Origin: an uncultured bacterium
GTDB lineage: Bacteria > Bacillota > Clostridia > Lachnospirales > Lachnospiraceae
Direction: 5' to 3'
Assembly (NCBI GenBank): GCA_947647735.1
Contig: CANSLJ010000020.1
Coordinates: 1 to 64,000, forward strand
DNA length: 64,000 nt
This document shows, in pieces, positions 18,121 through 52,532 of this stretch (its first letter is position 1; each line of letters begins with the position of its first letter). The position numbers and the translations under genes are program-made. The notes under the pieces are model-generated. The model saw nothing but the letters and a program-made list of their open reading frames with translations, searched no databases and was not told where the DNA came from.

Positions 18121-18250
18121 CGGGATACCATATATCCCTGAGGAGCCCTTTGAAAAACGTCGGCACTTAGCGAGGTCTCTCACGAGCTTAGTGTCCACTA
18201 CGTTTTTCACAGAGCGAAAGCGTGGCGACGAAGGGATATATGGTATCCCG
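18121..18250 (-). repeat. Structured palindromic repeat, copy 1
   Basis: A 130-bp imperfect palindrome. The outer arms 18121-18139 and 18232-18250 pair perfectly over 19 bp; the inner arms 18152-18160 and 18200-18208 pair perfectly over 9 bp (GAAAAACGT). Read on the minus strand the core matches copies 2-4, including ACACTAAGC and GCTAAGTGCCGACG. It lies between two antiporter genes of one operon. Confidence 0.88.
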
Positions 18251-18269
18251 CCGGCCTCCTTCCACAATC

Positions 18270-19745
18270 CTAAACCCCTTCAACCGCGATCATCTTGAAA
18301 AACTCCACCAGCGGTCCCGAAAAAAGTCCCAGCATCACCGTACTCACCGCAAAGATAACAAGCGGCACACACATCCTCCATCCCGGATCTGTCACGCCCG
18401 AAAGGATGCCGTAATCGAATTCCTTCTTCGGGAAAAATGCATGGATCACAATATTCATCATATAAAGAGCTGTAAGCAGTGCGGAAGCCAGCAGGCACCC
18501 GATGCCAAAATAAGCCTGCACATTACCGCTCTCCACCGCCGCCGATGCCAGATTCCACTTGCTGATAAATCCGGCAAGTCCCGGCACACCCATAAGTCCC
18601 AGAGACGCCACCGTAAAACAGCCGAACACGACCGGCATTTTCCTGCCGACACCATCCATCTCATAAATATAACTCTTCCCGGTCTGCTGCATAAAAGCTC
18701 CCGCACAGAAAAATGCACCTATCTTCATCACCGCATGACACACCAGATGGCAAAGAGCTCCAACCAATCCAAGAGGCGTCATCAGAGTGACACCAAAGAT
18801 CACATAGGACAGATTGCTGACCGTGGAATAGGCAAGGCGCCTCTTCAAATGTGTCTCCTTCACCGCCATACTGCATCCATAGACGATCGTAAACATAGCG
18901 AAACCCATCACCACATGCTGTACCCAGGTATCCTTCAAAAACGAAGTACCGAAACTGTAATATGTCAGACGGATTATCGCAAACACACCCGCTTTTACAA
19001 CCGCAACCGCATGCAGAAGCGCTGTTACCGGCGTAGGCGCCACACCCGCATCAGGCAGCCAGGAGCTCATCGGCCACATCGCCGCCTTTACGCCAAATCC
19101 CATAAAAGCGATCAGGTACACCCAGAGCAGCAGATTTTTCTTATCCCCGATCAATGCCATATCCAGAACGCCGCCAAGCTGAAACTCACAGGTTACGCCA
19201 TAAATAATGACAAACACCAGGCCGATCATCGCAAAGGCAGCACCGCCGATGGAGTAGTATAAATACTTCCTTGCCGCCAGGATCGCTTCTCTTTTCAGCG
19301 TATGGATCACAAGCGGTACCGTGGAGAGCGTCAGCAGCTCATAAAAGAAATACATGGACAAAAGGTCCGAAGCAAAAGCGATGCCCAGCGTTACGCCATA
19401 GGTCGTACTGTAAAACAGGAAAAATATCCTCTCCCGTTCCTCGTGTTCCATATATTCAAAGGAATACAGCGTAGCCAGCGGCCAGAGCAGGGAAACCAGG
19501 CCTGCAAAGACCATGGATACCCCGTCTATTTTAAAGGATATCGACAGATCTTCTACAAAGTATATGATATGAAATACTTCTGTGGGACCGTTCAGGATCA
19601 GTTTCCATACGATCGCGGAAGTCAACAACATGATGGCTTCCAGATACCACATCATGGTCTTTCTGTTTTTGAAGGGAAGCAACGGGGTTAATACTCCGCC
19701 GATTATGGGGAGGAGGATCGTTGCCAGAATCCAGTATTCGCTCAT
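18270..19745 (-). CDS. Antiporter-type subunit (MrpD-like) 3
   Basis: A 491-residue polytopic protein of the MrpD/NuoN/NuoM family with about 14 membrane segments. The conserved helix pair reads GFGVKAAMWPMSSWLPDAG followed by VAPTPVTALLHAVAVVKAG. It is expected to form one ion channel of the Mrp-like complex. The start follows GGAG. It is one of three approximately 500-residue paralogues in the operon, and is separated from its neighbours by structured repeats on both sides. Confidence 0.9.
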   Translation of the reverse strand: MSEYWILATILLPIIGGVLTPLLPFKNRKTMMWYLEAIMLLTSAIVWKLILNGPTEVFHIIYFVEDLSISFKIDGVSMVFAGLVSLLWPLATLYSFEYMEHEERERIFFLFYSTTYGVTLGIAFASDLLSMYFFYELLTLSTVPLVIHTLKREAILAARKYLYYSIGGAAFAMIGLVFVIIYGVTCEFQLGGVLDMALIGDKKNLLLWVYLIAFMGFGVKAAMWPMSSWLPDAGVAPTPVTALLHAVAVVKAGVFAIIRLTYYSFGTSFLKDTWVQHVVMGFAMFTIVYGCSMAVKETHLKRRLAYSTVSNLSYVIFGVTLMTPLGLVGALCHLVCHAVMKIGAFFCAGAFMQQTGKSYIYEMDGVGRKMPVVFGCFTVASLGLMGVPGLAGFISKWNLASAAVESGNVQAYFGIGCLLASALLTALYMMNIVIHAFFPKKEFDYGILSGVTDPGWRMCVPLVIFAVSTVMLGLFSGPLVEFFKMIAVEGV

Positions 19746-19774
19746 GTTAGGTTCTCCGTAGTGGTGACTTTCCG

Positions 19775-19915
19775 CCCGGTGAGAGGGGATTTATATCCCT
19801 CGTCGCCACGCTTTCGCTCCGTGAAAAGCGTAGCGGTACTAGGCTCGAAAGTACCTCGCCAAGTGCCGACGCTTTTCAAGGGGCTCCTCTGGGATATAAA
19901 TCCCCTCTCACCGGG
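19775..19915 (+). repeat. Structured palindromic repeat, copy 2
   Basis: A 141-bp palindromic element. The outer arms 19775-19799 and 19891-19915 are perfectly complementary over 25 bp; the inner arms 19823-19831 and 19869-19877 over 9 bp (GAAAAGCGT). The left internal loop is 23 nt, the same as in the other copies. It lies in the 282-base gap between two antiporter genes, antisense to them. The rest of that gap (19916-20027) is AT-rich and shows nothing recognisable. Confidence 0.9.
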
Positions 19916-20027
19916 CTGCGTTTTCTCATTATATCAGATTTATGTTTACCTCTATATTTTAAAGATCATGAGTGAGGATAAACATAAGCGATTTAAAATA
20001 TTTATAAGTTTTTCAATGTATATATTA

Positions 20028-21506
20028 TTACAATACTGTGCTTACGATTCCCTGAATGTACGCTGTCAGGGGGTTAGGGAAGATGCCTAACAGAACTGAC
20101 AGTGCCGCAAAAATGAATAAAGGAATCGTGATCAACAGATTGGGTTCTCTCTTTTGCAGATTTTTATAGTCGAAGTCCGCGCCGGGCAAAAATCCCTTTA
20201 TGGTGATCGGGAGCAGGTAGCCGGCGGTCAGGAGGGCGGAGATCAGCAGGATCACGGGGCCGAGCCAGGTGAAGATGCCGGTACCGGACTGGAGCGCGCC
20301 GAGTGCCAGATGCCATTTGCTGATAAATCCGCTGGCAGGGGGGATACCGATCAGCGCCAGTGACGCAAAGGTGTAGCACCATATGGTGACCGGCATTTCC
20401 TTGCCGATGCCTGTCATATCGTCAATGTTCGTTCTGCCGGTCTTATAGATGATCGCGCCGGCGGAGAGGAACAGGGCGGATTTGATGAAGGCATGGAATA
20501 CTACATGAAGCAGCGCGCCCGTCATTGCCTGGGGCTGCAGCAGGGCAAGCCCGAATAAAATATAGGAAACCTGGCTGACTGTGGAATAGGCAAGCCTTTT
20601 TTTCATGACTTTTTCCCGGTATGCCAGCATGGAACCCATGAAGACCGTGATCAGCGTAAGGCTCAGCCAGGCGGTCTGCACCCAGGTTCCTCTGATAAAG
20701 GATGCTCCGAATAAAAAGTATACTGTACGGATAATGCCCAGCACACCCGCCTTTACGATCAACCCTGACAATACCGCACTGGCAGGCGCCGGTGCAACCG
20801 GATGAGCCGTCGGAAGCCACGCATGCATCGGAAACATGCCCGCTTTTACGCCAAAGCCCAGTATCATAAAGAAGACTACGATAAGCAGCACTTTTTCGTT
20901 GCCTGCCGCCAGTTCCATATTCAGCGTTCCGCCTGCCTGAAATCTTAAGGTATCTGCATATTTACCCGCAAAAAACACTCCCATCAGCACCATGTAGGCG
21001 CCGCACAGCGAATAAAACAGGTATTTCAGGCCGCCCATGATCGCTTCCTTTGTTTTGGAATGCAGAACAAGGGGCATGGACAAAAGAGTCATCAGCTCAT
21101 AGAACAGATAATAGGTTACGATATTTCCGGCAAAGTTCAGCGCCAGCAGCACACCGAAAGACATCAGGTAAAATCCGAAATACCGTTTTTCCTCCTTTTC
21201 ATGTTTCATGTATTCAAAGGAATAAAATCCCGCCAGCACCCATACGATGGTGACGATCACCGTAAAGATCCGTCCCAGATCGTCAAGGCAGAAAGTAATC
21301 TTCATTTTCTCTTCCAGGCTCAGCAGTAAAATTTCTGCATCCCCGACGCCCAGCGCACAAAACGCCAGAATACCGGTTATCACAAGCCCTGCTCCTGTTA
21401 TGGCGAGGAGATTTTTTCTGGATGAAAACTCCGGCATCAGCAAAAGCACCACGCCCAGAAGTACGGGGAAAAATATGGCGGTTAACATTATTATTGAAGC
21501 ATTCAT
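20028..21506 (-). CDS. Antiporter-type subunit (MrpD-like) 2
   Basis: A 492-residue membrane protein of the MrpD/NuoN family. The motif GFGVKAGMFPMHAWLPTAHP followed by VAPAPASAVLSG marks the ion-channel helices. It resembles the long subunit at 15903-18074 in this motif more than it does the other MrpD-like proteins. It lies 34 bases after the first MrpD-like gene. The start codon has only a distant purine-rich stretch upstream, so coupled translation from the preceding gene is possible. Confidence 0.9.
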   Translation of the reverse strand: MNASIIMLTAIFFPVLLGVVLLLMPEFSSRKNLLAITGAGLVITGILAFCALGVGDAEILLLSLEEKMKITFCLDDLGRIFTVIVTIVWVLAGFYSFEYMKHEKEEKRYFGFYLMSFGVLLALNFAGNIVTYYLFYELMTLLSMPLVLHSKTKEAIMGGLKYLFYSLCGAYMVLMGVFFAGKYADTLRFQAGGTLNMELAAGNEKVLLIVVFFMILGFGVKAGMFPMHAWLPTAHPVAPAPASAVLSGLIVKAGVLGIIRTVYFLFGASFIRGTWVQTAWLSLTLITVFMGSMLAYREKVMKKRLAYSTVSQVSYILFGLALLQPQAMTGALLHVVFHAFIKSALFLSAGAIIYKTGRTNIDDMTGIGKEMPVTIWCYTFASLALIGIPPASGFISKWHLALGALQSGTGIFTWLGPVILLISALLTAGYLLPITIKGFLPGADFDYKNLQKREPNLLITIPLFIFAALSVLLGIFPNPLTAYIQGIVSTVL

Positions 21507-21540
21507 AATTTAAATAACCATGCCCTTTCTCTTTTTCACA

Positions 21541-23058
21541 CTATGCAAAATTTGCAAGTCCTGTCTCTATCAGATGAATGATCGGCTGGGAATTCATACC
21601 CAGGATCAGGTTCAGGATCACAAACAGGATGATCGTTATCGTATACAGTTTCTGCTCTTTCCAGCCTATGCTGAAATATCCTTTTTTCTCTATTACAGCC
21701 TGTTTCTCCGGCGTATAGATACGGATCACCGTTTTCAGGAAATAGATCGCATTCAGGATCGTACTGATGGCAAGAACGATCACTGTCGGAAACATCTTTC
21801 CGGTGGGATTGATGACCGCCGCCTTTGCGAACAGGAGCTTGCTGACAAAACCGGAAAAGATCGGAATGCCCACCATGGACAGGGAGCCCACCGCAAAGCC
21901 GATACCCGCTATCTTATTTCGATAGGCGGAACCGTTCAGCTCAAAGAAACTCCTGCTGCCGCCTGACACCTCTGTCAGTCCGATAGCGCTGATAAACAGC
22001 AGTGACTTTGTTGCCGCATGTACCAGAATATGATAAACGCTTGCAATCATACCCTCCTCTGTTCCGAGGCCGAAACCCATGTAGATATAGCCGATCTGCG
22101 CCACGGAAGAAAATGCGATCATCCTTCTGACATCCTTTTCCCCGATAGCGCTGACGGAACCGAAGATCATGCCGCACAGTCCAAATATAAAAAGTATATT
22201 GATAATATGACTGCTGTAAATAATATCCAGCCCGATCACTCTGTAAAAGATCTTGATCAGCAGAAAGATATAGCCCTTTGACACCAGGGAGGACAACATC
22301 GCCGCCGAAGAGACTGTGGAATACCCGTAAGCGTCCGGCAGCCAGGCATGGCAGGGGAACAGGGCACTTTTGATGGCAAGGCCGATGGTCATAATACCCA
22401 CTGTCACCAGCATCGGTATCCGGTAGGTCCCGCTTGCCATGATGCCTGCCATAGACTCCTGAATATTGCTCATCAACAGATGTCCTGTCAGGTCATACAA
22501 CATACAGATTCCCATCAGTAAAAGACCGGAACCCAGAAGGCTCATAATCATATAACGGACCGCCGCCTCTATGGTCCTGCCGTTCTGCCGGATCATGATC
22601 AGCCCGCAGGCTGCGATCGTATTGATCTCCACAAACACATACGCGGTAAACAGGTCGTTTGTGTAAACCAGCGCCAGCAGGGAACTCAGCATCATATCCA
22701 CAAGGATATAATAAATATTATGTTTCGTATATTCCACTTCATCGAACAGTTTTTTCCTGCCGCCTGTCATGGAGAGCAGCATCACGATGCAGAAAAACAT
22801 TGCCATCCCGGCTTCCAGCGCTCCCGCCCTGATCTCGTTTCCCCAGGGTGCCGGAAAATGTCCCATCATAAAGATGTAACTGCCGATACCGCTGTCGCAG
22901 ATATACCAGAGCAGAGCGCCCGACATCACACCGATCACGATGATCACCGCCGTATTCAACCGTTTTGCCCACTTCTCGGACAGGATCGAGGAAACAATGC
23001 CCGAAAACATCGATATCATGATCGAGAAAAAGGGCACATTCTGTATAAAATCCATCAA
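21541..23058 (-). CDS. Antiporter-type subunit (MrpD-like) 1
   Basis: A 505-residue proton-translocating-type membrane subunit, by position the MrpD/MbhH equivalent because it directly follows the MrpC gene, with a four-base overlap. The core motif is IKSALFPCHAWLPDAYGYST, which differs from the other paralogues. It probably carries cation/proton exchange together with the small subunits encoded before it. Confidence 0.9.
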   Translation of the reverse strand: MMDFIQNVPFFSIMISMFSGIVSSILSEKWAKRLNTAVIIVIGVMSGALLWYICDSGIGSYIFMMGHFPAPWGNEIRAGALEAGMAMFFCIVMLLSMTGGRKKLFDEVEYTKHNIYYILVDMMLSSLLALVYTNDLFTAYVFVEINTIAACGLIMIRQNGRTIEAAVRYMIMSLLGSGLLLMGICMLYDLTGHLLMSNIQESMAGIMASGTYRIPMLVTVGIMTIGLAIKSALFPCHAWLPDAYGYSTVSSAAMLSSLVSKGYIFLLIKIFYRVIGLDIIYSSHIINILFIFGLCGMIFGSVSAIGEKDVRRMIAFSSVAQIGYIYMGFGLGTEEGMIASVYHILVHAATKSLLFISAIGLTEVSGGSRSFFELNGSAYRNKIAGIGFAVGSLSMVGIPIFSGFVSKLLFAKAAVINPTGKMFPTVIVLAISTILNAIYFLKTVIRIYTPEKQAVIEKKGYFSIGWKEQKLYTITIILFVILNLILGMNSQPIIHLIETGLANFA

Positions 23059-23432
23059 AGCCCCTCCTTCCGCAACTGAATGGAAATCTCATCCAGATCC
23101 AGCGTATGATACCGCTGATACAAACGCACAGTCAGGGACAGCATCAGCGCCGTCACGGAAACCGACACAACGATACCGGTCAGCACAAGCCCGCTGGGGA
23201 TCGGATTGATATAGGCCTCCACTTCCTGCACGCCGTCCACAACAATGGGCGCAACCCTGCCCGTGATATACCCTTTCTCCGCCAGAAACAGGTACACCGC
23301 CGTATCCATGATATTCAGCCCGATGATCTTTTTGATCAGATTTTTCTGGATCAGCAGATTGGCAAAACCGATCCCGAACAGTAAAATGGCAACTTCCTCT
23401 CCATAATTAACCAGAAAATTTGTTTCAAGCAT
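23055..23432 (-). CDS. mnhC: MrpC/MnhC-like subunit (NuoK family)
   Basis: A 125-residue protein with three membrane segments of the NuoK/MrpC family. Typical features are the FGIGFANLLIQKNLIKKIIG first region and the DPIPQALVLTGIVVS-like segment INPIPSGLVLTGIVVS. It bridges the antiporter-type subunits of the complex. It lies two bases after the MrpB-like gene and overlaps the following MrpD-like gene by four bases. Confidence 0.92.
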   Translation of the reverse strand: MLETNFLVNYGEEVAILLFGIGFANLLIQKNLIKKIIGLNIMDTAVYLFLAEKGYITGRVAPIVVDGVQEVEAYINPIPSGLVLTGIVVSVSVTALMLSLTVRLYQRYHTLDLDEISIQLRKEGL

Positions 23433-23434
23433 GC

Positions 23435-24406
23435 CTAAAACCCTCCTTTACGGAACAGTGCAAAGAAAGCATACATGGTACAGGCAACCACCAGTCCGAC
23501 ACAGATATTCAGCGGCAGGATCAGCCCGCTGCTCAGAATATCTCCCGGCGTTCCCAGCGGAATACCGCTCTCCAGATGGTGCGCCCCCGTATAAAAGGAA
23601 TAGCTCTTTGCAATACAGTAAAAGCTGAGCGCGGAAAAGCTGATCCACTTATAAGTCTTTGCTGTAAAAAACCGCTCTGTTTTCTCAAAACCGAAGGCAT
23701 TCAGATATAAGATAAGCCCGGCACCGATGATAGCGCCGCCGGAAAAGCCGCCGCCCGGCGAAAGATGCCCGTTCAATATCACATAGACACCGAACAATAT
23801 GATAAAGGGCACCAGCACCATCGCCATCGTCTGCAGGATCTTATCGCTTTTCGGCTCATAATGGCTGTCCCGCTTTTCTTCCTCCTCCGCGCTGCCCTTT
23901 CCCTTTTTCTTATCATTCCGCATCAGGATCAACACAGTACAGGTCGCGATAAACAGCACATTGGATTCCCCAAAGGTATCAAAAGCACGATAGTCCAGGA
24001 TCATGCCCGTGACGATGTTCACCGCCCCGGTATCCTGCATACCGTCCTCGATATATTTCGCCGCAACCTCGTTGTGCGCCGGATTATCCGCACTGCCCAC
24101 AGGGGGCAGATAAGCCACCGTGATCAGCAGCATCACGATAAGCGTCAGACAGCAGACAAGAGCCGCCGCCCGGTAAAATTTCCGAAACAGCCGGTAACGC
24201 CTGTTATGCTCGATATCATAAACTTTCCGGATGATCTGGTCCTTTTCCGCCTCATACTCTTTCAGCCGTTTTTCATCCTCTTCTGCTCCGGCACCCGGCG
24301 CAACCTCCACATTACCGAGGTACGGATCTCTTATTCCTCTCATCCACAGTTTAAAAGCGCCGCCCGCTCTCTTTCCGTATTCTTCCTCAGGAATCGGTCT
24401 ACTCAT
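23435..24406 (-). CDS. MbhE-MrpB fusion subunit
   Basis: A 323-residue protein combining two modules. An MbhE/MrpA-C-terminal-like part (membrane helix about 84-104, then TGAVNIVTGMILDYRAFDTF GES) is followed by an MrpB/MnhB domain (LNGHLSPGGGFSGGAIIGAG). The N-terminal roughly 80 residues are a charged cytoplasmic extension, and a charged loop lies between the modules. Such fusions occur in Mbh/Mrp-type clusters where the MrpA C-terminal parts are split differently. It overlaps the MbhD-like gene by eight bases. Confidence 0.85.
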   Translation of the reverse strand: MSRPIPEEEYGKRAGGAFKLWMRGIRDPYLGNVEVAPGAGAEEDEKRLKEYEAEKDQIIRKVYDIEHNRRYRLFRKFYRAAALVCCLTLIVMLLITVAYLPPVGSADNPAHNEVAAKYIEDGMQDTGAVNIVTGMILDYRAFDTFGESNVLFIATCTVLILMRNDKKKGKGSAEEEEKRDSHYEPKSDKILQTMAMVLVPFIILFGVYVILNGHLSPGGGFSGGAIIGAGLILYLNAFGFEKTERFFTAKTYKWISFSALSFYCIAKSYSFYTGAHHLESGIPLGTPGDILSSGLILPLNICVGLVVACTMYAFFALFRKGGF

Positions 24407-24659
24407 GTTTCTCTTCGTCCTCCTCCCTCATGGCATGGATCTTTTTCAGCGTCGCAAAAAACAGCACGCTGGTGACGCCTGCCCCTACCGCCGCCTCCGT
24501 GATCGCAAGATCCGGAGACTCCAGCATGATCCAGATAATGGACATGATCAGGCTGTAGGACATAAATATTAAAATAGAGTTCAGCAGCCGCTTTGAAAAA
24601 CTTACCGAAACGGCACATACTACCAAAAATGCAAGCAGGATATATTGAAAAATCTGCAT
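24399..24659 (-). CDS. MbhD-like subunit (DUF4040)
   Basis: An 86-residue protein with two to three membrane helices. It matches the MbhD / DUF4040 segment that is part of the MrpA C-terminus in Bacillus but a separate gene in Mbh-type modules. The sequence ESPDLAITEAAVGAGV is the family hallmark. The start follows GGAGG with 7-base spacing. Confidence 0.88.
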   Translation of the reverse strand: MQIFQYILLAFLVVCAVSVSFSKRLLNSILIFMSYSLIMSIIWIMLESPDLAITEAAVGAGVTSVLFFATLKKIHAMREEDEEKHE

Positions 24660-24716
24660 GATTCATCCTCCTGTTCAGATTTGTAGATGCTCTTTTTCAT
24701 CCACCGTTTGATTCCC

Positions 24717-25052
24717 TCACCGCTCTTTGTTCTGCAGCTTCATTTCACAGAACTTCTCCAGATCCTCATCCACCGTATACTCCAGCCGGGAGATCAGATG
24801 AGAGGAGACCGGGGACGCGCACCATAAAAAAACAAGTACGAGCGCCAGTTTCAGCGTTACAAACCGAAAGCCGAACAGGATCATCAGCCCGGCAAGCGAG
24901 GCGCCGATCCCCAGCGTATCGCCCATCGCCGCAACATGCATCCGGTTCAGAACATATTTAAACTTAAAAACGCCAAAAATCTCAAGCAAAAATGTGACTG
25001 CGCCGATACATAAAAGTCCTGTTCCCAAAACAAACCTTATCCATTCAAACAT
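24717..25052 (-). CDS. mnhG: MrpG/MnhG-like subunit
   Basis: A 111-residue membrane protein of the MrpG/MnhG family with three membrane segments. It includes the typical FKYVLNRMHVAAMGDTLGIG stretch. It is four bases after the MrpF-like gene and part of the same cation/proton antiporter operon. Confidence 0.92.
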   Translation of the reverse strand: MFEWIRFVLGTGLLCIGAVTFLLEIFGVFKFKYVLNRMHVAAMGDTLGIGASLAGLMILFGFRFVTLKLALVLVFLWCASPVSSHLISRLEYTVDEDLEKFCEMKLQNKER

Positions 25053-25056
25053 GATA

Positions 25057-25395
25057 TCACCCTTCCTGTTTTTTCTCTTCTTCCCGTTTCCTTCTTTCAG
25101 CCAGATGCTCTTTATGCTCGATATATACCCCGGTATATACCTTTGTCAGCACCACCACCGCAAGGAAACTGATCATCGCATAGATCAGACAGATATCCAC
25201 CAGATAGTCCTCGTTCATCAGCAGGGCGAGGATCGCAATGATCGTCATAACGATCGTCCCCATCATGTTCACCGCAACCAGCCTGTCGGCGATCGTCGGT
25301 CCCAGTACCGCCCTGATCAGACAGAATATCGTAAGCAGTGCCAGCACTACTAAAATAATATGAAAAATTCCGGCATATTGTTGTACCAGTTCCAT
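25057..25395 (-). CDS. mnhF: MrpF/MnhF-like subunit
   Basis: A 112-residue membrane protein of the MrpF family; the conserved part is RAVLGPTIADRLVAVNMMGT. Several in-frame ATG codons occur. The one at 25395 is chosen because GAGG lies six bases before it; the frame could extend to 25419. It works as a small subunit of the Mrp-like complex. Confidence 0.9.
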   Translation of the reverse strand: MELVQQYAGIFHIILVVLALLTIFCLIRAVLGPTIADRLVAVNMMGTIVMTIIAILALLMNEDYLVDICLIYAMISFLAVVVLTKVYTGVYIEHKEHLAERRKREEEKKQEG

Positions 25396-25450
25396 CTTCA
25401 TCCTCATTTCCGCATACATTTTTTCTTTTATCTATGCCTGCGTCTTTCCT

Positions 25451-25939: not shown

Positions 25940-25972
25940 GGGTTTCTCCAAACCGTCCGCACTGGACAGACT

Positions 25973-27492: not shown

Positions 27493-27502
27493 AAAAAATC
27501 AA

Positions 27503-33764: not shown

Positions 33765-33904
33765 GTTCGCTGAGGGGAAAATATCCCTTCATCGCCACGC
33801 TCTCGCTCTGTGAAAAGCGTAGCGGACACTAAGCTCGTGAAATACCTCGCTAAGTGCCGACGCTTTTCAAAGGGCTCTTCAGGGATATTTTCCCCTCAGC
33901 GAAC
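33765..33904 (+). repeat. Structured palindromic repeat, copy 3
   Basis: A 140-bp element in the serS/DUF3881 gap. Outer arms 33765-33788 and 33881-33904 pair perfectly over 24 bp; inner arms 33812-33820 and 33860-33868 over 9 bp. The left internal loop is 23 nt and the right 12 nt. Core sequences match copies 1 and 2 closely. Antisense to the flanking genes. Confidence 0.9.
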
Positions 33905-44309: not shown

Positions 44310-44382
44310 AATAGTTTCCTTTCTTTTCCATCACTGATCTTTTGACATGCCTGAACAGACAGCTGTTTGTTTTTGTATGGTT

Positions 44383-44455: not shown

Positions 44456-44580
44456 CTTCTGCAAAATATGTAAAGTTTGGCGCTTATATTGTCATCTTTG
44501 GTTCTGCATAACTTGAGAGAATCGAGAAAAAATGATACATTGAAGGAAAAGATCCCGGTATGAAGAAAGGAAACTGCCAT

Positions 44581-45300: not shown

Positions 45301-45317
45301 ACTATGGAGTATCTATT

Positions 45318-46547
45318 ATGCTTGTACTGTGCACTGAGCTTGTTGCTTATATCCTTCACTATCTGACGATAAAAAGACTTTTCATCATCAAAAAATCGCT
45401 TCCTGCAAAATTCGTACGCCTGTTTATCAGCATTCTTCTCATAGGAATGGTCATCTATATCGGAGACTGGGGCAATCTCCCCCCGACTTTTGTGCTCTAT
45501 CTTGCCGGCATCCAGTATGCCTGTGAAGGCAGCCGGATAAAAAAGCTTACGCTTGCCCTTATGCTTGCCAGCACAGTCTTTGCCTGGAACGCTCTGTTGG
45601 ATAACATTGTTCCTGCCCATGATCACTGGCAGACAATTCCTTTCCGCATTCTCTTTTCTATCCTGCTGTATCTTATCATGCGCTTCCGGGGACCGGATGC
45701 AGAGACAGAGCTGGGAAAATCCCTGTGGCGCCTTATGCTTTTTCTGACGCTTCCTCCCACCGGCATTGTACTCAGTATCGTACTCGTTCCCGAAAACAGA
45801 GTGGCGGAGCAGCGATGGATCTTATTACTGTATACCGTACTGCTGCTGCTTGTCCTGTTCTCTCTGGTCGGCCTTTTATGGGCGATCGCCGTTTTATCCA
45901 AACACCGGAAACTGGAACAGCAGAATTTCTATGCGGAAATGAACAGGAAATATTATGAATCTATGAAACAACAGCATTTTGAGATCCGGCGGTTGAAACA
46001 TGATCTGTCGAACCATCTGCATGCTATCTCGCTTCTTCCCGCCGGGGAAAAGGAGGCGTATATTGCCGACCTGCTGGAAAGCCCTGCCCTCCTGCAGCGC
46101 ATGAACTACTGCGGTGATGATACGGTAAATGCCGTACTATCGGTAAAGGAACAACTTATGCGGCAGCAAAATATCGCACTTTCCCTGAAACTGGATATTC
46201 CCGAAATGCTGCCTTTTGATAATGCGGATATCTGCGTTCTGTTTGCCAATGCTTTGGATAACGCGATAGAAAGCTGCCTTGCTTTCCCGGAAAAACAGCG
46301 TTACATCGAGCTGACCGCCCGCCATCAGAAAGGGATGCTGGCTCTGTCCATAAAAAATCCCGCCTCTCTTTCCATAGAAGCGGGACACCTTCCTTCCACC
46401 ACAAAACCGGACGCCGAACACCACGGCTACGGGCTTCGCAGCATGGAGGAAATTGTGAATCATTATAAGGGAGACCTTAAAATAAAGGCTTTGGACGGGG
46501 TGTTTGAGTTGTTTTTGTATCTGCCGGAGCCGGGGAGAGGCGTGTAG
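45318..46547 (+). CDS. GHKL sensor histidine kinase, AgrC type
   Basis: A 409-residue kinase with about six N-terminal membrane helices (to about residue 195), the phospho-acceptor region RRLKHDLSNHLHAI, and a C-terminal GHKL ATPase (ALDNAIESC ... GYGLRSMEEIVNHYKG). It partners the LytTR regulator encoded 17 bases upstream. The ATG at 45318 has GGAG eight bases upstream; an earlier ATG (45246) lies inside the regulator gene. The signal is unknown; a peptide is usual for the class. Confidence 0.9.
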   Translation: MLVLCTELVAYILHYLTIKRLFIIKKSLPAKFVRLFISILLIGMVIYIGDWGNLPPTFVLYLAGIQYACEGSRIKKLTLALMLASTVFAWNALLDNIVPAHDHWQTIPFRILFSILLYLIMRFRGPDAETELGKSLWRLMLFLTLPPTGIVLSIVLVPENRVAEQRWILLLYTVLLLLVLFSLVGLLWAIAVLSKHRKLEQQNFYAEMNRKYYESMKQQHFEIRRLKHDLSNHLHAISLLPAGEKEAYIADLLESPALLQRMNYCGDDTVNAVLSVKEQLMRQQNIALSLKLDIPEMLPFDNADICVLFANALDNAIESCLAFPEKQRYIELTARHQKGMLALSIKNPASLSIEAGHLPSTTKPDAEHHGYGLRSMEEIVNHYKGDLKIKALDGVFELFLYLPEPGRGV

Positions 46548-46578
46548 GTTTTTCTTTTGCAGCTTTAAAAATTTTCCA

Positions 46579-46607
46579 TTGACTTTTTTCTCTTTTCTGC
46601 ATACACT
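46579..46607 (+). promoter_or_regulatory. Promoter of the ToxI-like repeat RNA
   Basis: TTGACT (46579-46584), 17-base spacer, TACACT (46602-46607). The predicted transcription start is near 46614, exactly where the first 34-nt repeat begins. Confidence 0.75.
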
Positions 46608-46613
46608 GGTATT

Positions 46614-46715
46614 AGCAGTGAACCCTACTGTGAGTGGGAACCATAAAAGCAGTGAACCCTACTGTGAGTGGGAACAATGAAAGCGGTGAATCCTACCGTA
46701 AGTGGAAATCACTTA
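46614..46715 (+). ncRNA. ToxI-like RNA antitoxin, three 34-nt tandem repeats
   Basis: Three contiguous 34-nt units at 46614-46647, 46648-46681 and 46682-46715. Units 1 and 2 differ only at two positions near the 3' end; unit 3 is more diverged. Each has a GTGAAcCCTAC block followed by GTGAGTGG and an A-rich end. In type III toxin-antitoxin systems such repeats form pseudoknotted RNAs that inhibit the toxin, which also cuts the precursor. The promoter upstream, the terminator at 46716-46743, and the toxin gene behind it complete the standard layout. Confidence 0.85.
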
Positions 46716-46743
46716 AGGCTGCACATTGTGCAGCTTTATTTAG
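46716..46743 (+). terminator. Terminator between ToxI-like repeats and toxin gene
   Basis: GCTGCAC-ATT-GTGCAGC is a perfect 7-bp stem followed by TTTATTTA. In ToxIN-type loci a leaky terminator at this place sets an excess of antitoxin RNA over toxin mRNA. Confidence 0.85.
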
Positions 46744-46755
46744 TAAAGGAGGCGT

Positions 46756-47292
46756 ATGAAACAGAAAAAACTACAATTATATATAATGGATATGAAATAT
46801 GTCCGTGACCTGCATAATGCAGATGACCGCGTACAATCTATATCTCCCCAAATACATAAGAATAACCGCCCTTTTGTTGGTGTCGTCGTTCTTTGCGGAA
46901 AATATAAATACTGCATTCCTCTAGATCATCCAAAAGAGAAACACTACACCATGAAAAATGATATTGATTTCTCTCGAATCTTTGTAAGCAACAAGCTGCT
47001 CGGCGTTCTTAATTTCAACAATATGATTCCTGTTGAAGATTGCTTTATCCAACATCTTAATGTTAAAATCTCTAAAAATGATTCCCCTGCTGAAAAAGCA
47101 TATAAAATTCTTTGTACAAAAGAATTAGACTGGATACAAAAAAACCAAGATGCTATTATCAAAAAAGCAAATAAACTATATAACATGATCTGTTCTGATA
47201 AAATAAATCATAGTCTCAAAAAGCGATGTCTAGATTTTAAAAAGCTGGAAAATGTGTTAGAAAAAAAGATGTCAAAATTTTATTCTTCTTAA
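46756..47292 (+). CDS. toxN: Type III toxin, ToxN/AbiQ-family endoribonuclease
   Basis: A 178-residue protein resembling ToxN/AbiQ. The N-terminus YIMDMKYVRDLHNADDRV, the core PFVGVVVLCGKYKYCIPLDHPKEKH and the later GVLNFNNMIPV are the family landmarks. The C-terminal half is helical and Lys-rich. Family members are sequence-specific RNases neutralised by the repeat RNA encoded just upstream, and several cause abortive infection on phage attack. The gene is clearly more AT-rich than its neighbours, suggesting acquisition by transfer. The start follows AAAGGAGG. I call this from pattern memory, not alignment. Confidence 0.85.
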   Translation: MKQKKLQLYIMDMKYVRDLHNADDRVQSISPQIHKNNRPFVGVVVLCGKYKYCIPLDHPKEKHYTMKNDIDFSRIFVSNKLLGVLNFNNMIPVEDCFIQHLNVKISKNDSPAEKAYKILCTKELDWIQKNQDAIIKKANKLYNMICSDKINHSLKKRCLDFKKLENVLEKKMSKFYSS

Positions 47293-47303
47293 CTTTTTAT
47301 TTC

Positions 47304-47933
47304 TCATCTTCCCGCACTCTCCCGATACCCTCTCCTCGTCCATACATATACCTGAAAAAACATGATAACAATCCCTGTTCCTGCACTGAGATAAGCACTG
47401 TGCCACCAAGAAATATGAATATCCAGCATATACCAGAACCAGCCGATCACAGGAACAACCGCTCCGAGCGTCAGTCCCCAGTAAGCTGCATACCCGACCA
47501 TCGCAGACTGGGCGCGCCAGTTTCTGGAATGCTTAAACCAGAACCAGACCGGCTTATAATTTTCGCCATAGAATAACTTCATATAATAATCAAAAACACT
47601 TTCAGCCGGAATTTTGACATACTCATATTTCCCGAAATACCATGCTGCCAGCACGATCAATATAAAACCAATCAGGTTTGCAATAAAAAGCGCTTCCCAT
47701 CCGAATCCCCATATTCTGACAAGCGGATTCCACTCTCTTTTCAGATCCGGCGTATTCACATAAGTGATAAATCCATCCATCAGATGGATCAGCAGATTTC
47801 CCGCAGAGAGGCGGATAAAACGAAATCTGGATTTCTTTCCCGGTTTCCAGAAAACGAGGCATAAAGCCAGTACCAATATACTCATTACAAAAAGTATAAT
47901 GCCTCTCTGCATGTTATCTGCTGTCATACTCAT
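47304..47933 (-). CDS. Membrane protein of unknown function
   Basis: A 209-residue protein with about five membrane helices, rich in Trp and Tyr in the second half (FWFKHSRNWRAQ, VIGWFWYMLD). No family recognised. Its start overlaps the deoD stop by four bases, so it is translationally coupled to purine-nucleoside phosphorylase. A role in nucleoside handling is possible only by context. Confidence 0.7.
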   Translation of the reverse strand: MSMTADNMQRGIILFVMSILVLALCLVFWKPGKKSRFRFIRLSAGNLLIHLMDGFITYVNTPDLKREWNPLVRIWGFGWEALFIANLIGFILIVLAAWYFGKYEYVKIPAESVFDYYMKLFYGENYKPVWFWFKHSRNWRAQSAMVGYAAYWGLTLGAVVPVIGWFWYMLDIHISWWHSAYLSAGTGIVIMFFQVYVWTRRGYRESAGR

Positions 47934-48646
47934 GCTAACTCTAACGCCACCTCTATCATATTCCTGAATTCGACTCTTCTTTCCTCTGCATTCAATTCTT
48001 CTCCTGTAAATACATGATCAGAAATGCTCAAAAGACTGAGCGCTTTTTTCTTAGCGTGCACCGCATTGATATAAAGTGCCGCTGATTCCATCTCCACCGC
48101 AAGAATGCCGGCATCCGCCCACTTCTTTGTACGCTCCGGATTAAAGTTATAAAAACCGTCCGCTGAAAGAACATTACCGACTTTCACATTGATATTTTTC
48201 TCCCGTGCAGCAGAAACAGCTTTTTCCAGTAATCCGAAATCCGCAAGCGGCGCAAAATGTCCCGGTACTTCAAGCTGTCCCGGATAAGCGGAATCCGTGG
48301 AAGCACCCATTGCGATCACAAGGTCCTTTAACTTCATATCATCCTGCAGTGCACCAGCACTTCCGACTCTTATAATATTTTCCACCCCATAAAAATGATA
48401 CAGCTCATAAGAATAGATTCCTATGGACGGCATACCCATACCGCTCCCCATCACGGAAACTTCTTTCCCCTTATAGGTTCCGGTATATCCGAGCATATTC
48501 CTCACCTGATTAAAACAAACCGGATTTTCCAACCATTCTTCCGCAATAAACTTCGCTCTGAGCGGATCTCCCGGCATCAATACCGTCTTTGCAATATCCC
48601 CGTATTTTGCCTCGTTATGTGGTGTCGGTGTCAAATCTTTTCCCAT
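47930..48646 (-). CDS. deoD: Purine-nucleoside phosphorylase, DeoD type
   Basis: A 238-residue hexameric-type purine nucleoside phosphorylase. It splits purine (deoxy)nucleosides with phosphate into base and (deoxy)ribose-1-phosphate. Landmarks are VLMPGDPLRAKFIAE, GSGMGMPSIGIYSYEL and the active-site VEMESAALY with SISDH and its Asp. Full length. The start follows GGAGG. Confidence 0.95.
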   Translation of the reverse strand: MGKDLTPTPHNEAKYGDIAKTVLMPGDPLRAKFIAEEWLENPVCFNQVRNMLGYTGTYKGKEVSVMGSGMGMPSIGIYSYELYHFYGVENIIRVGSAGALQDDMKLKDLVIAMGASTDSAYPGQLEVPGHFAPLADFGLLEKAVSAAREKNINVKVGNVLSADGFYNFNPERTKKWADAGILAVEMESAALYINAVHAKKKALSLLSISDHVFTGEELNAEERRVEFRNMIEVALELA

Positions 48647-48746
48647 ACCCTGTCCTCCTGTTTTTGTATAATTACTTCTATAATATAACTCACGGGTTGT
48701 ACATGACCCTTATTATCAATATAGCACAAATATTTTACCATTACTA

Positions 48747-48775
48747 TTCAAATTTTCTCCATTTCTGTGTATACT
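48747..48775 (+). promoter_or_regulatory. Putative promoter of the MoxR/VWA/DUF4132 operon
   Basis: TTCAAA (48747-48752), 17 bases, TATACT (48770-48775). The leader of about 87 nt to the TTG start then contains three inverted repeats (48779-48828). Confidence 0.5.
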
Positions 48776-48778
48776 TAA

Positions 48779-48828
48779 GATAAATATTATCAGGTTATAA
48801 CCTCTGTCAGCTCGGATAAAAATATCCG
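48779..48828. promoter_or_regulatory. Three clustered inverted repeats in operon leader
   Basis: GATAA-ATA-TTATC (48779-48791), GGTTATAACC (48793-48802) and CGGATA-AAAA-TATCCG (48813-48828) lie within 50 bases just upstream of the MoxR gene. They may be operators or small leader hairpins. Confidence 0.5.
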
Positions 48829-48868
48829 GGCGTCCGTTACCTATAATACAAAAAGGAGGAACCATCTT

Positions 48869-49978
48869 TTGAAAGAAAGTATCAAACCACCGGTAGAAAT
48901 ACGTTACCAAAAAGAGCTTGCGGCGCTGGAAGCTCTTGATACCGCGAGAAAACCCGGGAACTGGCGCCTCTCGCCTCAGGCAGTCCGCACTTTTATCTTA
49001 GGAACCCAAAAACCCATTACATATCAGGGAGAAAGCATCTCCATCCGGAAAAAATATTTTGGAAATGATGCCCTTGTAGAACGCTGCATTGTCACTTTGG
49101 CCGGCAACAGAGGCTTAATGCTTGTGGGTGAACCGGGCACTGCCAAAACCATGCTTTCGGAGCTGCTGTCTGCTGCCATCAGCGGCGTCAGCACCAACAC
49201 CATTCAGGGCACTGCCGGCACCACCGAAGACATGATCAAATATTCCTGGAATTATGCTCTGCTTCTCGCAAAGGGGCCCGGCAGGGAAGCGCTTGTCCCG
49301 TCTCCGCTCTATGTGGGCATGGAGAGGGGTATCTTAACCCGGTTCGAAGAGATCACCAGAACCCCCGCCGAGATTCAGGACTCTCTGATCAGCGTATTGA
49401 GCGATAAAGTCCTGAACGTGCCGGAGCTTGGCGATGATGGCTTTTTATTTGCAAAACCCGGATTTAATGTGATCGGAACGGCAAACACCAGAGACAAAGG
49501 TGTCAATGAAATGAGCAGCGCTCTAAAGCGGCGTTTTAATTTTGAAACGGTCATGCCGGTGCGGGAGGTTGCCCTCGAAAAGCAGATCATCTTAAACGAA
49601 GTCGGCGAACTTGCCCGGGAAAACGGTATTGCCATGACACCGGATGAAGAGGCGGCTGAACTTCTTGCCTCCACCTATCATGAACTGCGAGAGGGCATTT
49701 CCTCCTACGGGCACAGGATCGACAAACCCGGTGCTGTTATGAGCACGGCGGAAGCCGTATCCGTCTATTACCAGACCATGATCTCCGGCTATTACTATGG
49801 TGACGGTTCCTTTGATATGGACTGCCTGGTGCAGAATCTGGTGGGCGCCGTCTCCAAAGAAAACAAGGAGGATCTCGGCAAGGTAAAGGAATATTTCTCT
49901 ACCGTGATAAAAGATAAGAGCAGTAAAGAAGGTGGATTATGGAAAAAATATTACGAAGCAAGGAAATGGCTGAAATAG
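48869..49978 (+). CDS. MoxR-type AAA+ ATPase (YehL-like)
   Basis: A 369-residue AAA+ ATPase of the MoxR class. Walker A is GEPGTAKT (about residues 87-94), the Walker B/helix-2 region RFEEITRTPAEIQDSLISVLSD, sensor 1 IGTANTRDKG and the arginine-finger region SSALKRRF. MoxR proteins act as chaperone-like remodellers, usually with a VWA-domain partner, which is encoded two genes on. The start is a TTG with AAGGAGGA eight bases upstream. First gene of the operon; by gene content it corresponds to E. coli yehL. Confidence 0.92.
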   Translation: MKESIKPPVEIRYQKELAALEALDTARKPGNWRLSPQAVRTFILGTQKPITYQGESISIRKKYFGNDALVERCIVTLAGNRGLMLVGEPGTAKTMLSELLSAAISGVSTNTIQGTAGTTEDMIKYSWNYALLLAKGPGREALVPSPLYVGMERGILTRFEEITRTPAEIQDSLISVLSDKVLNVPELGDDGFLFAKPGFNVIGTANTRDKGVNEMSSALKRRFNFETVMPVREVALEKQIILNEVGELARENGIAMTPDEEAAELLASTYHELREGISSYGHRIDKPGAVMSTAEAVSVYYQTMISGYYYGDGSFDMDCLVQNLVGAVSKENKEDLGKVKEYFSTVIKDKSSKEGGLWKKYYEARKWLK

Positions 49979-52395
49979 TACTGCTTCCGGTCAGACATCA
50001 TAGTCCCGCCTGCTCCTTTCATGTCAGGAAGGTCATTGAACGCTTCAGGCCTTCTGCTATTTTGATAGAAGGGCCTGAGAATGCCAATGAGCTCATACCT
50101 GTTATGGTACATCCGGATACAATGGCTCCCTTTGCCATCTACTATTCTTATCATGATAAGACGGGACAGCTCTCGGAAGAAAAAGAACATTACAAATGCT
50201 ATTATCCTTTTCTGGACTATTCTCCGGAACTCGCCGCTTTAAGAGCGGCAGATGAGCTCGGGATTCCTGCCTCCTTTATGGATCTGTCCTATGGCAATAT
50301 CCTTGCCGCATCGAAACAGGGGACAGGGCTTCGGAAAAAAGAGGAAAAAAACAATTACAATGACGACTATCTGCTTTCCCGGAATACCTATGTCAAAAGA
50401 CTCTGTGAAAAAGCAAATTTAAGAAGCTTTGATGAATTCTGGGAAAAATATTTTGAGATAGGCGGGCTTTCTAAAGACAGCGAGTCATGGTTTTCCGATC
50501 TGCTGCTCTACTGCACGCAGGCGAGAGAAAGCACGCCTGAGGAAGTGATCCGGGATGAAGGCTCCCTGGCGAGAGAAGCACATATGGCGGAAGTGATCCT
50601 ACAGATGGCTCGTAAAAACGGCGATAAGCCGCTCCGCATTCTGGCGGTAACCGGCGGTTTTCATACGCCTGCGCTGGCGACGCTTCTGCGGGAGACTCCG
50701 GCAGATAAATCTTCCCGCTCAAAATCCGACGATGGTTTATCTCCAGCGGTTTCCGAAAAAAACAGAAAAGATAAAACACCTGCCAATATCAGGCTTCAAA
50801 ATCAGGAAGTCTATCTTATGCCTTATTCCATGGAGGCTGCGGATTCTTTAAACGGCTACGCCAGCGGTATGCCTTATCCCGCTTTTTACCAGAAAATATG
50901 GGAAAGGCTTTCGGAGTCCACAGAAAACTGCTACCGGCAGACCGTTCTTGATTTTCTGGTATCCTGCGGAAAACAAACGCGAAGAAAAGAGGGAAATCTT
51001 TCCACATACGATGAGATCTGTGCGGATCAGATGGCGGATGGGCTTGCTGCGCTCCGGGGCAAAGAAGAGCCCGGCGCCTATGAACTTTTTGACGCTGTCC
51101 TATCTTCTTACGTGAAGGGTGAATACAATATCGCCACAGATACGCCTATGCGGATCCTCAGAAAAAATATGACCGGAAATGCCATGGGAAAGCTTTGCGA
51201 TGATGCCCTTGTTCCACCGATCATCCATGATTTTGAGGCGCTGTGCCGTCAGTTCTCCCTGAAAACAGGCTCTACGCTGGAGACGGAAGTTACTCTTTCT
51301 CTGTTTTCCTCCGAAAAGCACCGCCGGGAAAGCTGCTTTTTTCACCGTATGGCATTTTTACATACCGGTTATGCAAGAAAAGTGAAAGGTCCCAATCTCC
51401 AGAAACAGAAGGACCGCAATCTGATCCGGGAAATCTGGCGGTATAAATGGAGTACACAGGTAACCGCAGCTTTGATCGATGTATCTGTCTATGGCGCTAC
51501 GATCGAGGAAGCGGCGGACAGTCTTGTCAAAGAGGAATTGAAGAAGGAGATCGGCGCCGGCAGATGCGCTGTCCTTCTCACACAGGTTTTTGAGATGGGA
51601 TTGAAAAATCAGCTTCAGGCTATCTATGAACAGGCTCAGGAACTGATCCAGAAAGATACGGATTTTTATTCCCTTGCAGATGCCCTTTCCTATCTGAAAA
51701 TGATGCAGGAACTCGGTCCCCTTTATCAGTCTGAACTGGATTTTGACATACTGCTGCGGCTTACGGTCAGAAAGCTCATCGCTCTGCTGCCTTCTATGAC
51801 CAGAGTGAAAGAGGAAGATCTGAACAGATGCATGAATGCTGTAAAACTCCTTTATCAACTGACTAAAGACAGCGCACAGGAAGAATTTTATGATATCCTG
51901 CTACAGATGCAGAAGGATGTACAGATACAACCGGGGCTGGACGGATGCATTCACGGCATTCTCTACGGAGGCGGCAGAGAGGATGCCGCTCTGATCGAAA
52001 AAGCCTGTCTCGGTTATTTTCAGGGTACAAAAGAACAGATGAAAAAAACAGCGCTTTTTTTCCGGGGACTGTTTTTCTCCGCGAGGGATCTTATCTTTAT
52101 CGGCAGTCAGATCCTCGAAATGCTGGATACCTTTTTAGTGCAGGCGAAAGATACGGAATTTATGGAACTTTTGCCGGAACTGCGTATGGCTTTCACTTAT
52201 TTTACGCCGAGGGAGATTGACAGGATCGCGGAAAAAGCTGCCGCTCTTCATGGCAAAACAGGGAAAGATATTACAAGCCGGAAAGAAATTCCGGCGGACT
52301 GGTATACTTATGGGAGAGAGTTGGATGCTTATATGAAAAGGCGGACGCCCGAGGAGAAAATATCTCTTACGCAACTCGTTCCCACTCCGGGCTAA
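49939..52395 (+). CDS. DUF5682-like protein (YehM-like)
   Basis: An 818-residue protein, the expected size for the DUF5682/YehM group. The N-terminus has LLPVRHHSPACSFHV and ILIEGPENANELIP, and near residue 236 VTGGFHTPAL; these His- and Gly-rich motifs look like conserved active or ligand sites but no reaction is known. It overlaps the MoxR gene by 40 bases. The 3' end runs into structured repeat copy 4: codons for the last 16 or so residues lie in the element's left arm and internal loop, and the stop TAA falls in its inner stem. The family call is moderate; the position in the MoxR/VWA/SWIM cluster supports it. Confidence 0.8.
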   Translation: MEKILRSKEMAEIVLLPVRHHSPACSFHVRKVIERFRPSAILIEGPENANELIPVMVHPDTMAPFAIYYSYHDKTGQLSEEKEHYKCYYPFLDYSPELAALRAADELGIPASFMDLSYGNILAASKQGTGLRKKEEKNNYNDDYLLSRNTYVKRLCEKANLRSFDEFWEKYFEIGGLSKDSESWFSDLLLYCTQARESTPEEVIRDEGSLAREAHMAEVILQMARKNGDKPLRILAVTGGFHTPALATLLRETPADKSSRSKSDDGLSPAVSEKNRKDKTPANIRLQNQEVYLMPYSMEAADSLNGYASGMPYPAFYQKIWERLSESTENCYRQTVLDFLVSCGKQTRRKEGNLSTYDEICADQMADGLAALRGKEEPGAYELFDAVLSSYVKGEYNIATDTPMRILRKNMTGNAMGKLCDDALVPPIIHDFEALCRQFSLKTGSTLETEVTLSLFSSEKHRRESCFFHRMAFLHTGYARKVKGPNLQKQKDRNLIREIWRYKWSTQVTAALIDVSVYGATIEEAADSLVKEELKKEIGAGRCAVLLTQVFEMGLKNQLQAIYEQAQELIQKDTDFYSLADALSYLKMMQELGPLYQSELDFDILLRLTVRKLIALLPSMTRVKEEDLNRCMNAVKLLYQLTKDSAQEEFYDILLQMQKDVQIQPGLDGCIHGILYGGGREDAALIEKACLGYFQGTKEQMKKTALFFRGLFFSARDLIFIGSQILEMLDTFLVQAKDTEFMELLPELRMAFTYFTPREIDRIAEKAAALHGKTGKDITSRKEIPADWYTYGRELDAYMKRRTPEEKISLTQLVPTPG

Positions 52396-52532
52396 ACGTA
52401 GCGGACACTAAGCTCTCATGTGAAGCATAGATTTTCTTAGGCGGTGTATTTTAGCGCCTTAGAAAATCTCTTCACATTGCGCTAAGTGCCGACGTTTAGC
52501 AGGGTTGCTACAGAGATATTTTCTCCTCGGGC
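52347..52532 (+). repeat. Structured palindromic repeat, copy 4
   Basis: A 186-bp element with outer arms 52347-52367 and 52512-52532 (21 bp perfect) and inner arms 52391-52399 and 52492-52500 (GCTAAACGT, 9 bp perfect). The left loop is 23 nt, as in the other copies. The apical part is longer (92 nt against 37-39) and holds another stem pairing ATGTGAAG with CTTCACAT. The left arm is inside the preceding coding sequence. Confidence 0.88.

What the first reader, a model, noticed from the sequence alone, without database searches (positions are those of the whole stretch)
18121..52532. Family of four long-palindrome intergenic elements with covarying stems
Elements at 18121-18250, 19775-19915, 33765-33904 and 52347-52532 share a core (ACACTAAGC ... 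GCTAAGTGCCGACG). Each has perfect outer stems of 19, 25, 24 and 21 bp and a perfect 9-bp inner stem. Stem sequences differ between copies while pairing is kept: inner GAAAAGCGT, GAAAAACGT and GCTAAACGT all match their partner arms; outer GAGGGG...TCCCT in copy 3 becomes GAGGAG...TCTCT in copy 4 with matching changes opposite. The left internal loop is 23 nt in all four. This points to selection on an RNA or cruciform structure, or to a copying process that repairs one arm from the other. All lie between co-directional genes, in either orientation. No transposase is present, so a non-autonomous element or a structured RNA is possible.
Basis: seen in the sequence. Interest (0 to 1): 0.85.

Follow-up and report, generated by a model that had tools for sequence, protein, structure and literature searches.

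The report
Fold-back mobile repeat with covarying stems
The four palindromes belong to a large family of small, gene-less, apparently mobile DNA repeats found in one family of bacteria; their hairpin stems keep changing sequence while staying paired, which makes them a natural test of whether selection or arm-to-arm copying keeps DNA hairpins intact.

Summary
The four elements belong to a family with 76 covariance-model hits in the 4.1-Mb source genome and hits in 24 of 61 genomes searched (own included), all in one bacterial family. Stems covary beyond controls, within this genome and across genera, around conserved unpaired motifs. Outer stems are nearly pure Watson-Crick and differ far more between copies than the core does.

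In sister species (mainly G001, G003, G008) longer forms end in 17-bp inverted repeats (CAATGTCATTTAGTTAA type) with about 10-bp target duplications: 12 of 21 such elements match at 8 or more of 10 positions, against 4 of 420 cross pairs. IS4-type elements with the same or similar ends occur in G004, G006 and G024. I read the family as a fold-back MITE, moved in trans by IS4-type transposase in at least some species.

Unresolved: the window genome's own copies lack those ends and duplications, and no intact IS4-like or Y1 transposase hit was found there. What keeps stems paired is open: few intermediates and some double changes favour arm-to-arm copying, but orthologous copies also show single-arm changes. 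New variant of a known kind.

The parts
18119..18252 (-). Copy 1 of the fold-back element (outer stem to outer stem), in sense with the flanking antiporter-subunit-like genes
   Evidence: (CM hit C20:18129-18242 -)
19774..19916 (+). Copy 2, antisense to its neighbours; outer stem 26 bp
   Evidence: CM hit C20:19789-19901 +
33765..33904 (+). Copy 3, between a DUF3881 gene and serS, antisense to both; outer stem 24 bp
   Evidence: (CM hit C20:33778-33892 +)
52347..52532 (+). Copy 4, with a long extra palindrome in the apical loop; supplies the last codons of the upstream DUF5682 ORF
   Evidence: (CM hit C20:52357-52524 +)
52418..52477 (.). Nested palindrome in the apical loop of copy 4 (ATGTGAAG...CTTCACAT); similar inserts in the apical loops of L019, L031 and L043
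   Evidence: direct reading
52343..52346 (+). 5' border motif GGAC abutting the outer stem of copy 4; GGAC or (G)TCC is found near this place in 57 of 76 parsed rows

Best explanation
The elements are copies of a non-autonomous, fold-back mobile DNA element (MITE-like). Shown: each is one long imperfect hairpin made of helices that vary in sequence (P1 outer, P2, P3, sometimes an apical helix) separated by conserved unpaired motifs (CACGCTYYCGCT on the left, CGG-TACTA / TAAGT-CCG near the apex), often framed by GGAC or GTCC and TG. In sister species a longer form has 17-bp terminal inverted repeats outside this frame and about 10-bp target duplications, and IS4-type insertion sequences with the same or similar ends exist in three relatives. 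Inferred: those copies were moved in trans by an IS4-family DDE transposase. The copies in the window's genome are either old members that lost their ends or are moved by something not found here. Inferred, less certain: the arms are kept complementary at least partly by DNA-level arm-to-arm copying (replication template switching within the hairpin), which yields covariation with few intermediates.
For: 76 CM hits in the own genome; 24 of 61 genomes positive; within the genus 76, 61 (scoring cap), 26, 12, 9, 5, 4, 3 and 0 hits. Sites of copies 1 and 2: no element in the flanks read of eight relatives, no CM match above 17 bits in 14 relatives' loci (the 17-bit partial match, E 0.014, is in L099 near the copy-1 site), and short gaps in G001. 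TIR pattern, up to 2 mismatches: G003 25+25 against control 0+1, G001 27+29 against 0+0. TSD: at least 8 of 10 in 12 of 21 TIR-bounded elements against 4 of 420 cross pairs, 10 of 10 in 5 of 21 against 0 of 420; the 21 include two whole ISs and five pieces without the core; 8 of the 14 with core reach 8. Transposases of G006 and G004 exceed the NCBIfam IS4 cut-off (168 and 189 bits, cut-off 115); a G024 element with such ends and a 10/10 duplication holds a 39%-identical transposase. Covariation. Outer stems, 72 own copies: 1712-1752 WC, 10-14 G-T, 3-5 A-C, 10-28 other, by scoring penalty. Inferred changes in core helices: 41-80 WC-to-WC double, 13-16 via G-T (7-10 of them at one column), 4 via A-C, 3 other. 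One orthologous stem differs by two compensated C-G/T-A pairs between G005 and G008. Template switching that restores stems: PMC8794818 (abstract and passages).
Against: Copies in the window's own genome show neither TIR (2+1 pattern hits, none at a CM hit) nor a consistent duplication. The G006 transposase has no match in G001, G003, G005 or G008, which carry TIR-bearing elements, and only a 31% partial match in G000; the assemblies are drafts. Five of 21 TIR-bounded elements show no duplication. Against arm copying: of four orthologous copies of G005/G008, only one shows compensated changes, and it also has one mismatch; the others show one G-T at the inner foot of the stem (L181/L185), one outer-stem mismatch, one P2 G-T and a decayed apical palindrome (L183/L187), or a lost apex (L178/L260). 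G-T exceeds A-C in outer stems (14:5, 12:3, 10:3), a hint that pairing in one strand matters. Conserved unpaired motifs across genera suggest sequence-specific recognition that copying alone does not explain. Double changes can be inflated by tree error and by recombination between copies.
Confidence: 0.62

Rival explanations
1. A structured RNA (cis element or dispersed small RNA) whose fold is under selection; the copies spread because the RNA or its folded form is used.
For: Conserved unpaired motifs in a covarying frame across genera; z = -13 fold for copy 4; G-T commoner than A-C in outer stems; G-T states in two of four orthologous comparisons.
Against: Both orientations relative to genes (11 sense, 6 antisense, 4 divergent, 3 convergent, 3 undecided of 27). 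No Rfam match. G-T makes up under 1% of outer-stem pairs, low for an RNA stem by recalled standards; no control RNA was measured. Large copy-number swings between congeners.
Confidence: 0.23
2. A REP-like element mobilised as single-stranded DNA by a Y1 (RAYT/IS200-type) transposase that reads a GGAC tag next to a hairpin.
For: GGAC or (G)TCC within a few bases of the outer-stem foot in 57 of 76 parsed rows; the border recurs in some copies of other genera; REPs in the literature carry tetranucleotide tags (PMC3733652, abstract and passages).
Against: No Y1_Tnp match in G001, G005, G010, G019, G025 and G030, all of which carry copies; the own genome has only a partial match (positions 2-45, one internal stop). 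The CGTC REPs in the passages read have 8-9 bp stems.
Confidence: 0.08
3. The arms are made from the target at insertion, so each copy carries a new outer stem.
For: Copies with 3-5 of 88 core differences share only 52% identity in the distal 12 bp of the arm (10 pairs).
Against: TIR-bearing copies of one species share much the same outer stem, so it is inherited through transposition. Distal-arm identity rises as core distance falls. The gene-end test at L041 was inconclusive.
Confidence: 0.06
4. Concerted evolution: gene conversion between copies homogenises the core, leaving old, divergent outer stems at each locus.
For: Core much more alike than distal arms.
Against: Does not itself explain why divergent arms stay complementary; no recombination analysis was run.
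Confidence: 0.12

Closest known systems
MITEs of IS4-family insertion sequences (DDE transposase, NCBIfam NF033592)
   Same: In sister species: 17-bp TIR nearly identical to that of IS4-type elements, 9-10-bp duplications, short deletion derivatives, no coding capacity seen.
   Different: Interior is a long hairpin with conserved unpaired motifs and covarying stems; the copies in the window and the other own-genome copies examined lack the TIR and a consistent duplication.
bcr1 and related Bacillus cereus repeats
   Same: Short, high-copy repeats whose copy number varies between strains (PMC6542083, passages); listed among stem-loop families in PMC2267715 (passages).
   Different: Mobility there is associated with a TTTAT motif, not seen at the ends aligned here. 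That bcr1 has a covarying RNA structure is recalled, not read.
REP / CGTC- and GTAG-tagged palindromes
   Same: Palindromic, mostly intergenic, tetranucleotide at the stem foot (PMC3733652, abstract and passages).
   Different: Much longer, several helices and loops; no Y1 gene in six carriers.
Template-switch-maintained hairpins (PMC8794818)
   Same: Perfect stems with multibase compensatory changes (abstract and passages).
   Different: That work concerns RNA genes; here the hairpin is a dispersed repeat in both orientations.

Membership tests
IS4-family MITE | TIRs shared with an autonomous IS4-family element | tested here: met
   Met for sister-species copies: CAATGTCATTTAGTTAA against CAATGTCATTTAGATAA (G006), CAATGTCATTAAGTTAA (G024), TAATGTCATTAACTTAA (G004).
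IS4-family MITE | TIRs present in the window's own copies | tested here: not met
   2+1 pattern hits in G000, none at a CM hit; border consensus fades within about 10 bases of the outer stem.
IS4-family MITE | Target-site duplication (9-10 bp) | tested here: met
   Sister species: at least 8/10 in 12 of 21 against 4 of 420. Own copies: not met, none consistent.
IS4-family MITE | Mobilisation in trans by the IS transposase | not testable with these tools
   Needs a transposition assay; the G006 transposase has no match in the G001, G003, G005, G008 drafts.
REP/RAYT system | Y1 transposase in carrier genomes | tested here: not met
   6 carriers without any PF01797 match.
REP/RAYT system | Tetranucleotide tag at the stem foot | tested here: inconclusive
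   GGAC (36) or (G)TCC (21) near the foot in 57 of 76 parsed rows, but rows were selected by that motif with a shift of up to 8 bases allowed and without a control.
Known structured RNA family | Match to an Rfam model | tested here: not met
   0 matches at copy 3 up to E = 5; only a tRNA in the window at gathering score.
Cis-regulatory RNA | Consistent orientation relative to a gene | tested here: not met
   Mixed in 27 copies (crude ORF calls).
bcr1-type repeat | TTTAT-associated ends | tested here: not met
   No such shared motif at the ends printed or in the column counts.

The most novel reading that the evidence does not exclude
A family of mobile hairpins whose folded single strand is itself the recognised unit: conserved unpaired motifs are read by an unidentified factor, stems are free to drift because replication template switching keeps rewriting one arm from the other, and IS4-type ends were picked up in some lineages as a second means of transport.
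Probability: 0.22. Interest if true: 0.78.

Novelty: new variant of a known kind. Interest (0 to 1): 0.55.

Why it matters
Compensatory change is usually taken as proof of a functional RNA. Here a family with 76 hits in one genome and at least 280 in 23 relatives (two of those relatives at the scoring cap) shows strong covariation in repeats that behave like mobile DNA and lie in both orientations, so it offers a test of how much covariation DNA-level arm copying can produce. If confirmed, that would be a warning for covariation-based RNA discovery and a natural system for measuring template switching. It also shows a structured interior inside IS4-type MITEs; no description of it turned up in searches of the held open-access library.

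Tried and rejected
Viral origin: a 15-base core pattern gave 7 places in the viral collection (my rough chance estimate is higher), and none fits the covariance model. Plasmids and phages: no match for copy 3. RAYT/Y1 mobilisation: rejected as a general mechanism. Target-derived arms: disfavoured. A scan for a duplication at any pair of end positions in own-genome copies found nothing consistent (57 rows). Pairing of flanks outside the outer stem is slightly above cross-copy controls (mean 5.03 against 4.39, s.d. 0.12; 9 of 57 strong against about 2.7 expected) and stays unexplained. Gene-end test of arm copying at L041 and copy 4: inconclusive. Empty site of L184 in G005: element absent, but the spacer is too diverged for a base-exact empty site. 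Rows dropped: 5 loci (L030, L039, L054, L056, L057) as chance pattern hits, leaving 52; 2 of 52 (L020, L031); the 76 rows are not the 76 CM hits and include a few chance rows (for example second rows of L007, L018, L022, L043), and 72 rows passed the stem filter. A1 used 41 of 46 insert-free copies (L006, L011, L013, L045, L052 left out). Elements are those TIR-bounded in loci I held, and part of these were fetched because two TIRs lay close together. No structure prediction and no recombination analysis was run. On re-checking for this report I found single-arm G-T changes that I had first overlooked; for that I lowered the main confidence from 0.68 to 0.62, the novel case from 0.25 to 0.22 and the interest from 0.56 to 0.55, and raised the RNA rival from 0.20 to 0.23.

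Full report
Observation. The four elements are present as described, with small corrections to stem lengths. They share one architecture: outer stem P1, a 23-nt left internal loop containing a small GC-YYYY-GC side hairpin, a 9-bp stem P2, a bulged stem P3 and an apical loop; copy 4 has a further long palindrome in the apical loop (the side hairpin is from the alignment fold).

Family. A core pattern found 57 places (control 11) in the source genome, and a covariance model R1 built from 41 insert-free own copies found 76. In 61 genomes, the own one included, it found 24 positives: 8 of 9 genomes of the genus and 16 of 28 in other genera of the same family, some with only weak hits (for example G013, G026, G029 at E 1e-4 to 1e-3); none of the 24 genomes of other families of the order. 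Loci with a relative of a neighbouring gene carry Lachnospiraceae names among others; the nearest is Bacterium 1XD8-76 at 87% protein identity. The sites of copies 1 and 2 show no element in the flanks of eight relatives read or, by gap lengths, in G001; the model finds nothing in 14 relatives' loci except a 17-bit partial match in L099 (E 0.014) near the copy-1 site.

Structure. On A1, 12 of 24 pairs have changes on both sides; the covariation score is 0.363 against 0.158 in shuffles and at most 0.110 when slid, while the count of pair types is not above shuffles. On A2 (47 distinct rows, mostly other genera; fitted to the model, so it leans towards it) the score is 0.613 against 0.185 and at most 0.119 when slid, with 21 of 24 pairs changed on both sides and 94.4% of cells paired; pair types 54 against 50.4, reached by 53 of 500 shuffles. 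Stems have quite different sequences in different genera, while motifs such as CACGCTYYCGCT, CGG-TACTA and TAAGT-CCG stay.

Outer stem. In 72 own copies 1712-1752 pairs are Watson-Crick, with 10-14 G-T, 3-5 A-C and 10-28 other, depending on penalty; 18 to 25 of the 72 copies are imperfect. Copies with 3-5 differences in 88 core columns (10 pairs) have 52% identity in the distal 12 bp of the arm, falling to 33% for distant copies. So the outer stem changes much faster than the core and yet stays paired. It is inherited through transposition, since TIR-bearing copies of one species share much the same stem.

Orthologous copies between G005 and G008 (about 93-96% identical around three of them) gave mixed evidence. 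L180/L186: two compensated C-G/T-A changes plus one mismatch that G008 lacks, no core change. L181/L185: one single-arm change at the inner foot of the stem (A-T in G008, G-T in G005) and one in the right loop. L183/L187: one outer-stem mismatch in G005, one G-T in P2 of G008, one loop change, and an apical palindrome that is perfect in G005 and decayed in G008. L178/L260: the apex is lost in G008 and the arms kept. On parsimony trees of the own copies, double WC-to-WC changes number 41 to 80, against 13-16 involving G-T (7-10 at one column), 4 involving A-C and 3 other; tree error and recombination can inflate the first figure.

Mobility. In G001, G003 and G008 the hairpin sits inside a longer element ending in CAATGTCATTTAGTTAA-type inverted repeats. 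The pattern with up to 2 mismatches occurs 25+25 times in G003 and 27+29 times in G001, with controls 0+1 and 0+0. Of 21 elements bounded by such repeats (14 with the core, five pieces without it, two whole ISs), 12 match at 8 or more of 10 flanking positions (4 of 420 in cross pairs) and 5 at all ten (0 of 420). Three more have 7-9 matches in a 9-bp frame (L269, L289, L291), one has 7 in both frames (L298), and five show no duplication (L230, L243, L259, L293, L305). In G008 the copy L184 (same as L063) is flanked by ATACCGCTCC on both sides and is absent from G005. IS4-type elements with these ends lie in G006 (1680 bp, at a contig end, transposase 437 aa), G004 (1554 bp, 434 aa, 9/10 duplication) and G024 (1562 bp, 10/10 duplication); the first two transposases pass the NCBIfam IS4 cut-off, the third is 39% identical to that of G006. 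The G024 one has inserted into a sequence like the left loop of a hairpin element (direct reading). The G006 transposase has no match in G001, G003, G005 or G008.

The window genome's own copies end differently: outside the outer stem only GGAC (36) or (G)TCC (21) and a short TG-rich tail are shared, in 57 of 76 parsed rows, and no duplication is consistent. Either they are old copies that lost their ends, or they use another route. The GGAC border suggested Y1/RAYT mobilisation, but six carrier genomes have no Y1 match and the own genome only a partial one. Copy 4 shows what insertion does to a gene: the DUF5682 ORF continues about 16 codons into it, whereas five relatives end near the border. 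In G007 the same site reads GGAC, then one arm-like stretch, then TGA, which may be a deletion remnant or the state before insertion.

Mechanism. Identity as a fold-back, MITE-like mobile element is well supported; IS4-type mobilisation is well supported for sister species and inferred for the rest. For stem maintenance, DNA-level arm copying is favoured by the rarity of intermediates among paralogous copies, by double changes in one orthologous stem and by mixed orientation relative to genes, and such copying is described in the literature (PMC8794818, abstract and passages; other papers seen only as a listing). Against it stand the single-arm changes in the other orthologous copies. Selection on a folded strand is not excluded, and the conserved unpaired motifs speak for some recognition. 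Among known kinds, it works like an IS4 MITE with a structured interior and resembles bcr1-type repeats in scale, but it did not pass the tests made here for REP/RAYT, bcr1 or any Rfam family.

Novelty. Searches of the held open-access library listed no description of it; subscription papers are not covered. I rate it a new variant of a known kind.

Noticed in passing
window 52418-52477; L019, L031, L043: A second palindrome family (ATGTGAAG..TAGATTTTCTTAG ... CTTAGAAAATCTCTTCACAT) sits in the apical loop of at least four copies, so palindromes are nested in palindromes.
   Followed up: no
L018, L019 (own genome), L290, L291, L294 (G003): A hairpin insert (GGCTCTT...AGAGCC type) sits in the left internal loop of several copies.
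   Followed up: no
L168 1240-2700, L169 1320-2280 (G025); L172-L177 (G016, G019): Tandem partial duplications of one end of the element in G025, and inverted pairs of copies, mostly 0.2-1 kb apart, in G016, G019 and G025.
   Followed up: partly
L308 1350-2930 (G024): An IS4-type element with a perfect 10-bp duplication has inserted into what looks like the left loop of a hairpin element.
   Followed up: partly
L230, L243, L293 (G003): TIR-bearing copies lacking a duplication sit between the arms of a GTTCAGC...GCTGAAC palindrome, a possible preferred target.
   Followed up: no
L095, L098 intergenic regions: A different intergenic repeat (AAATGCCTTCCGACGAC..CCCTCGAACG..GAGGGGGCG) around the same antiporter genes in Schaedlerella arabinosiphila and a relative.
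   Followed up: no
L031, L041, L049, L217 (own genome): Outer stems extended to about 31-50 bp into flanking sequence, in L041 over the end of a coding frame.
   Followed up: partly
L099 7550-7576: A weak partial model match (17 bits, E 0.014) just downstream of the antiporter gene in a Dorea-labelled MAG, near the place of copy 1; could be a remnant or chance.
   Followed up: no
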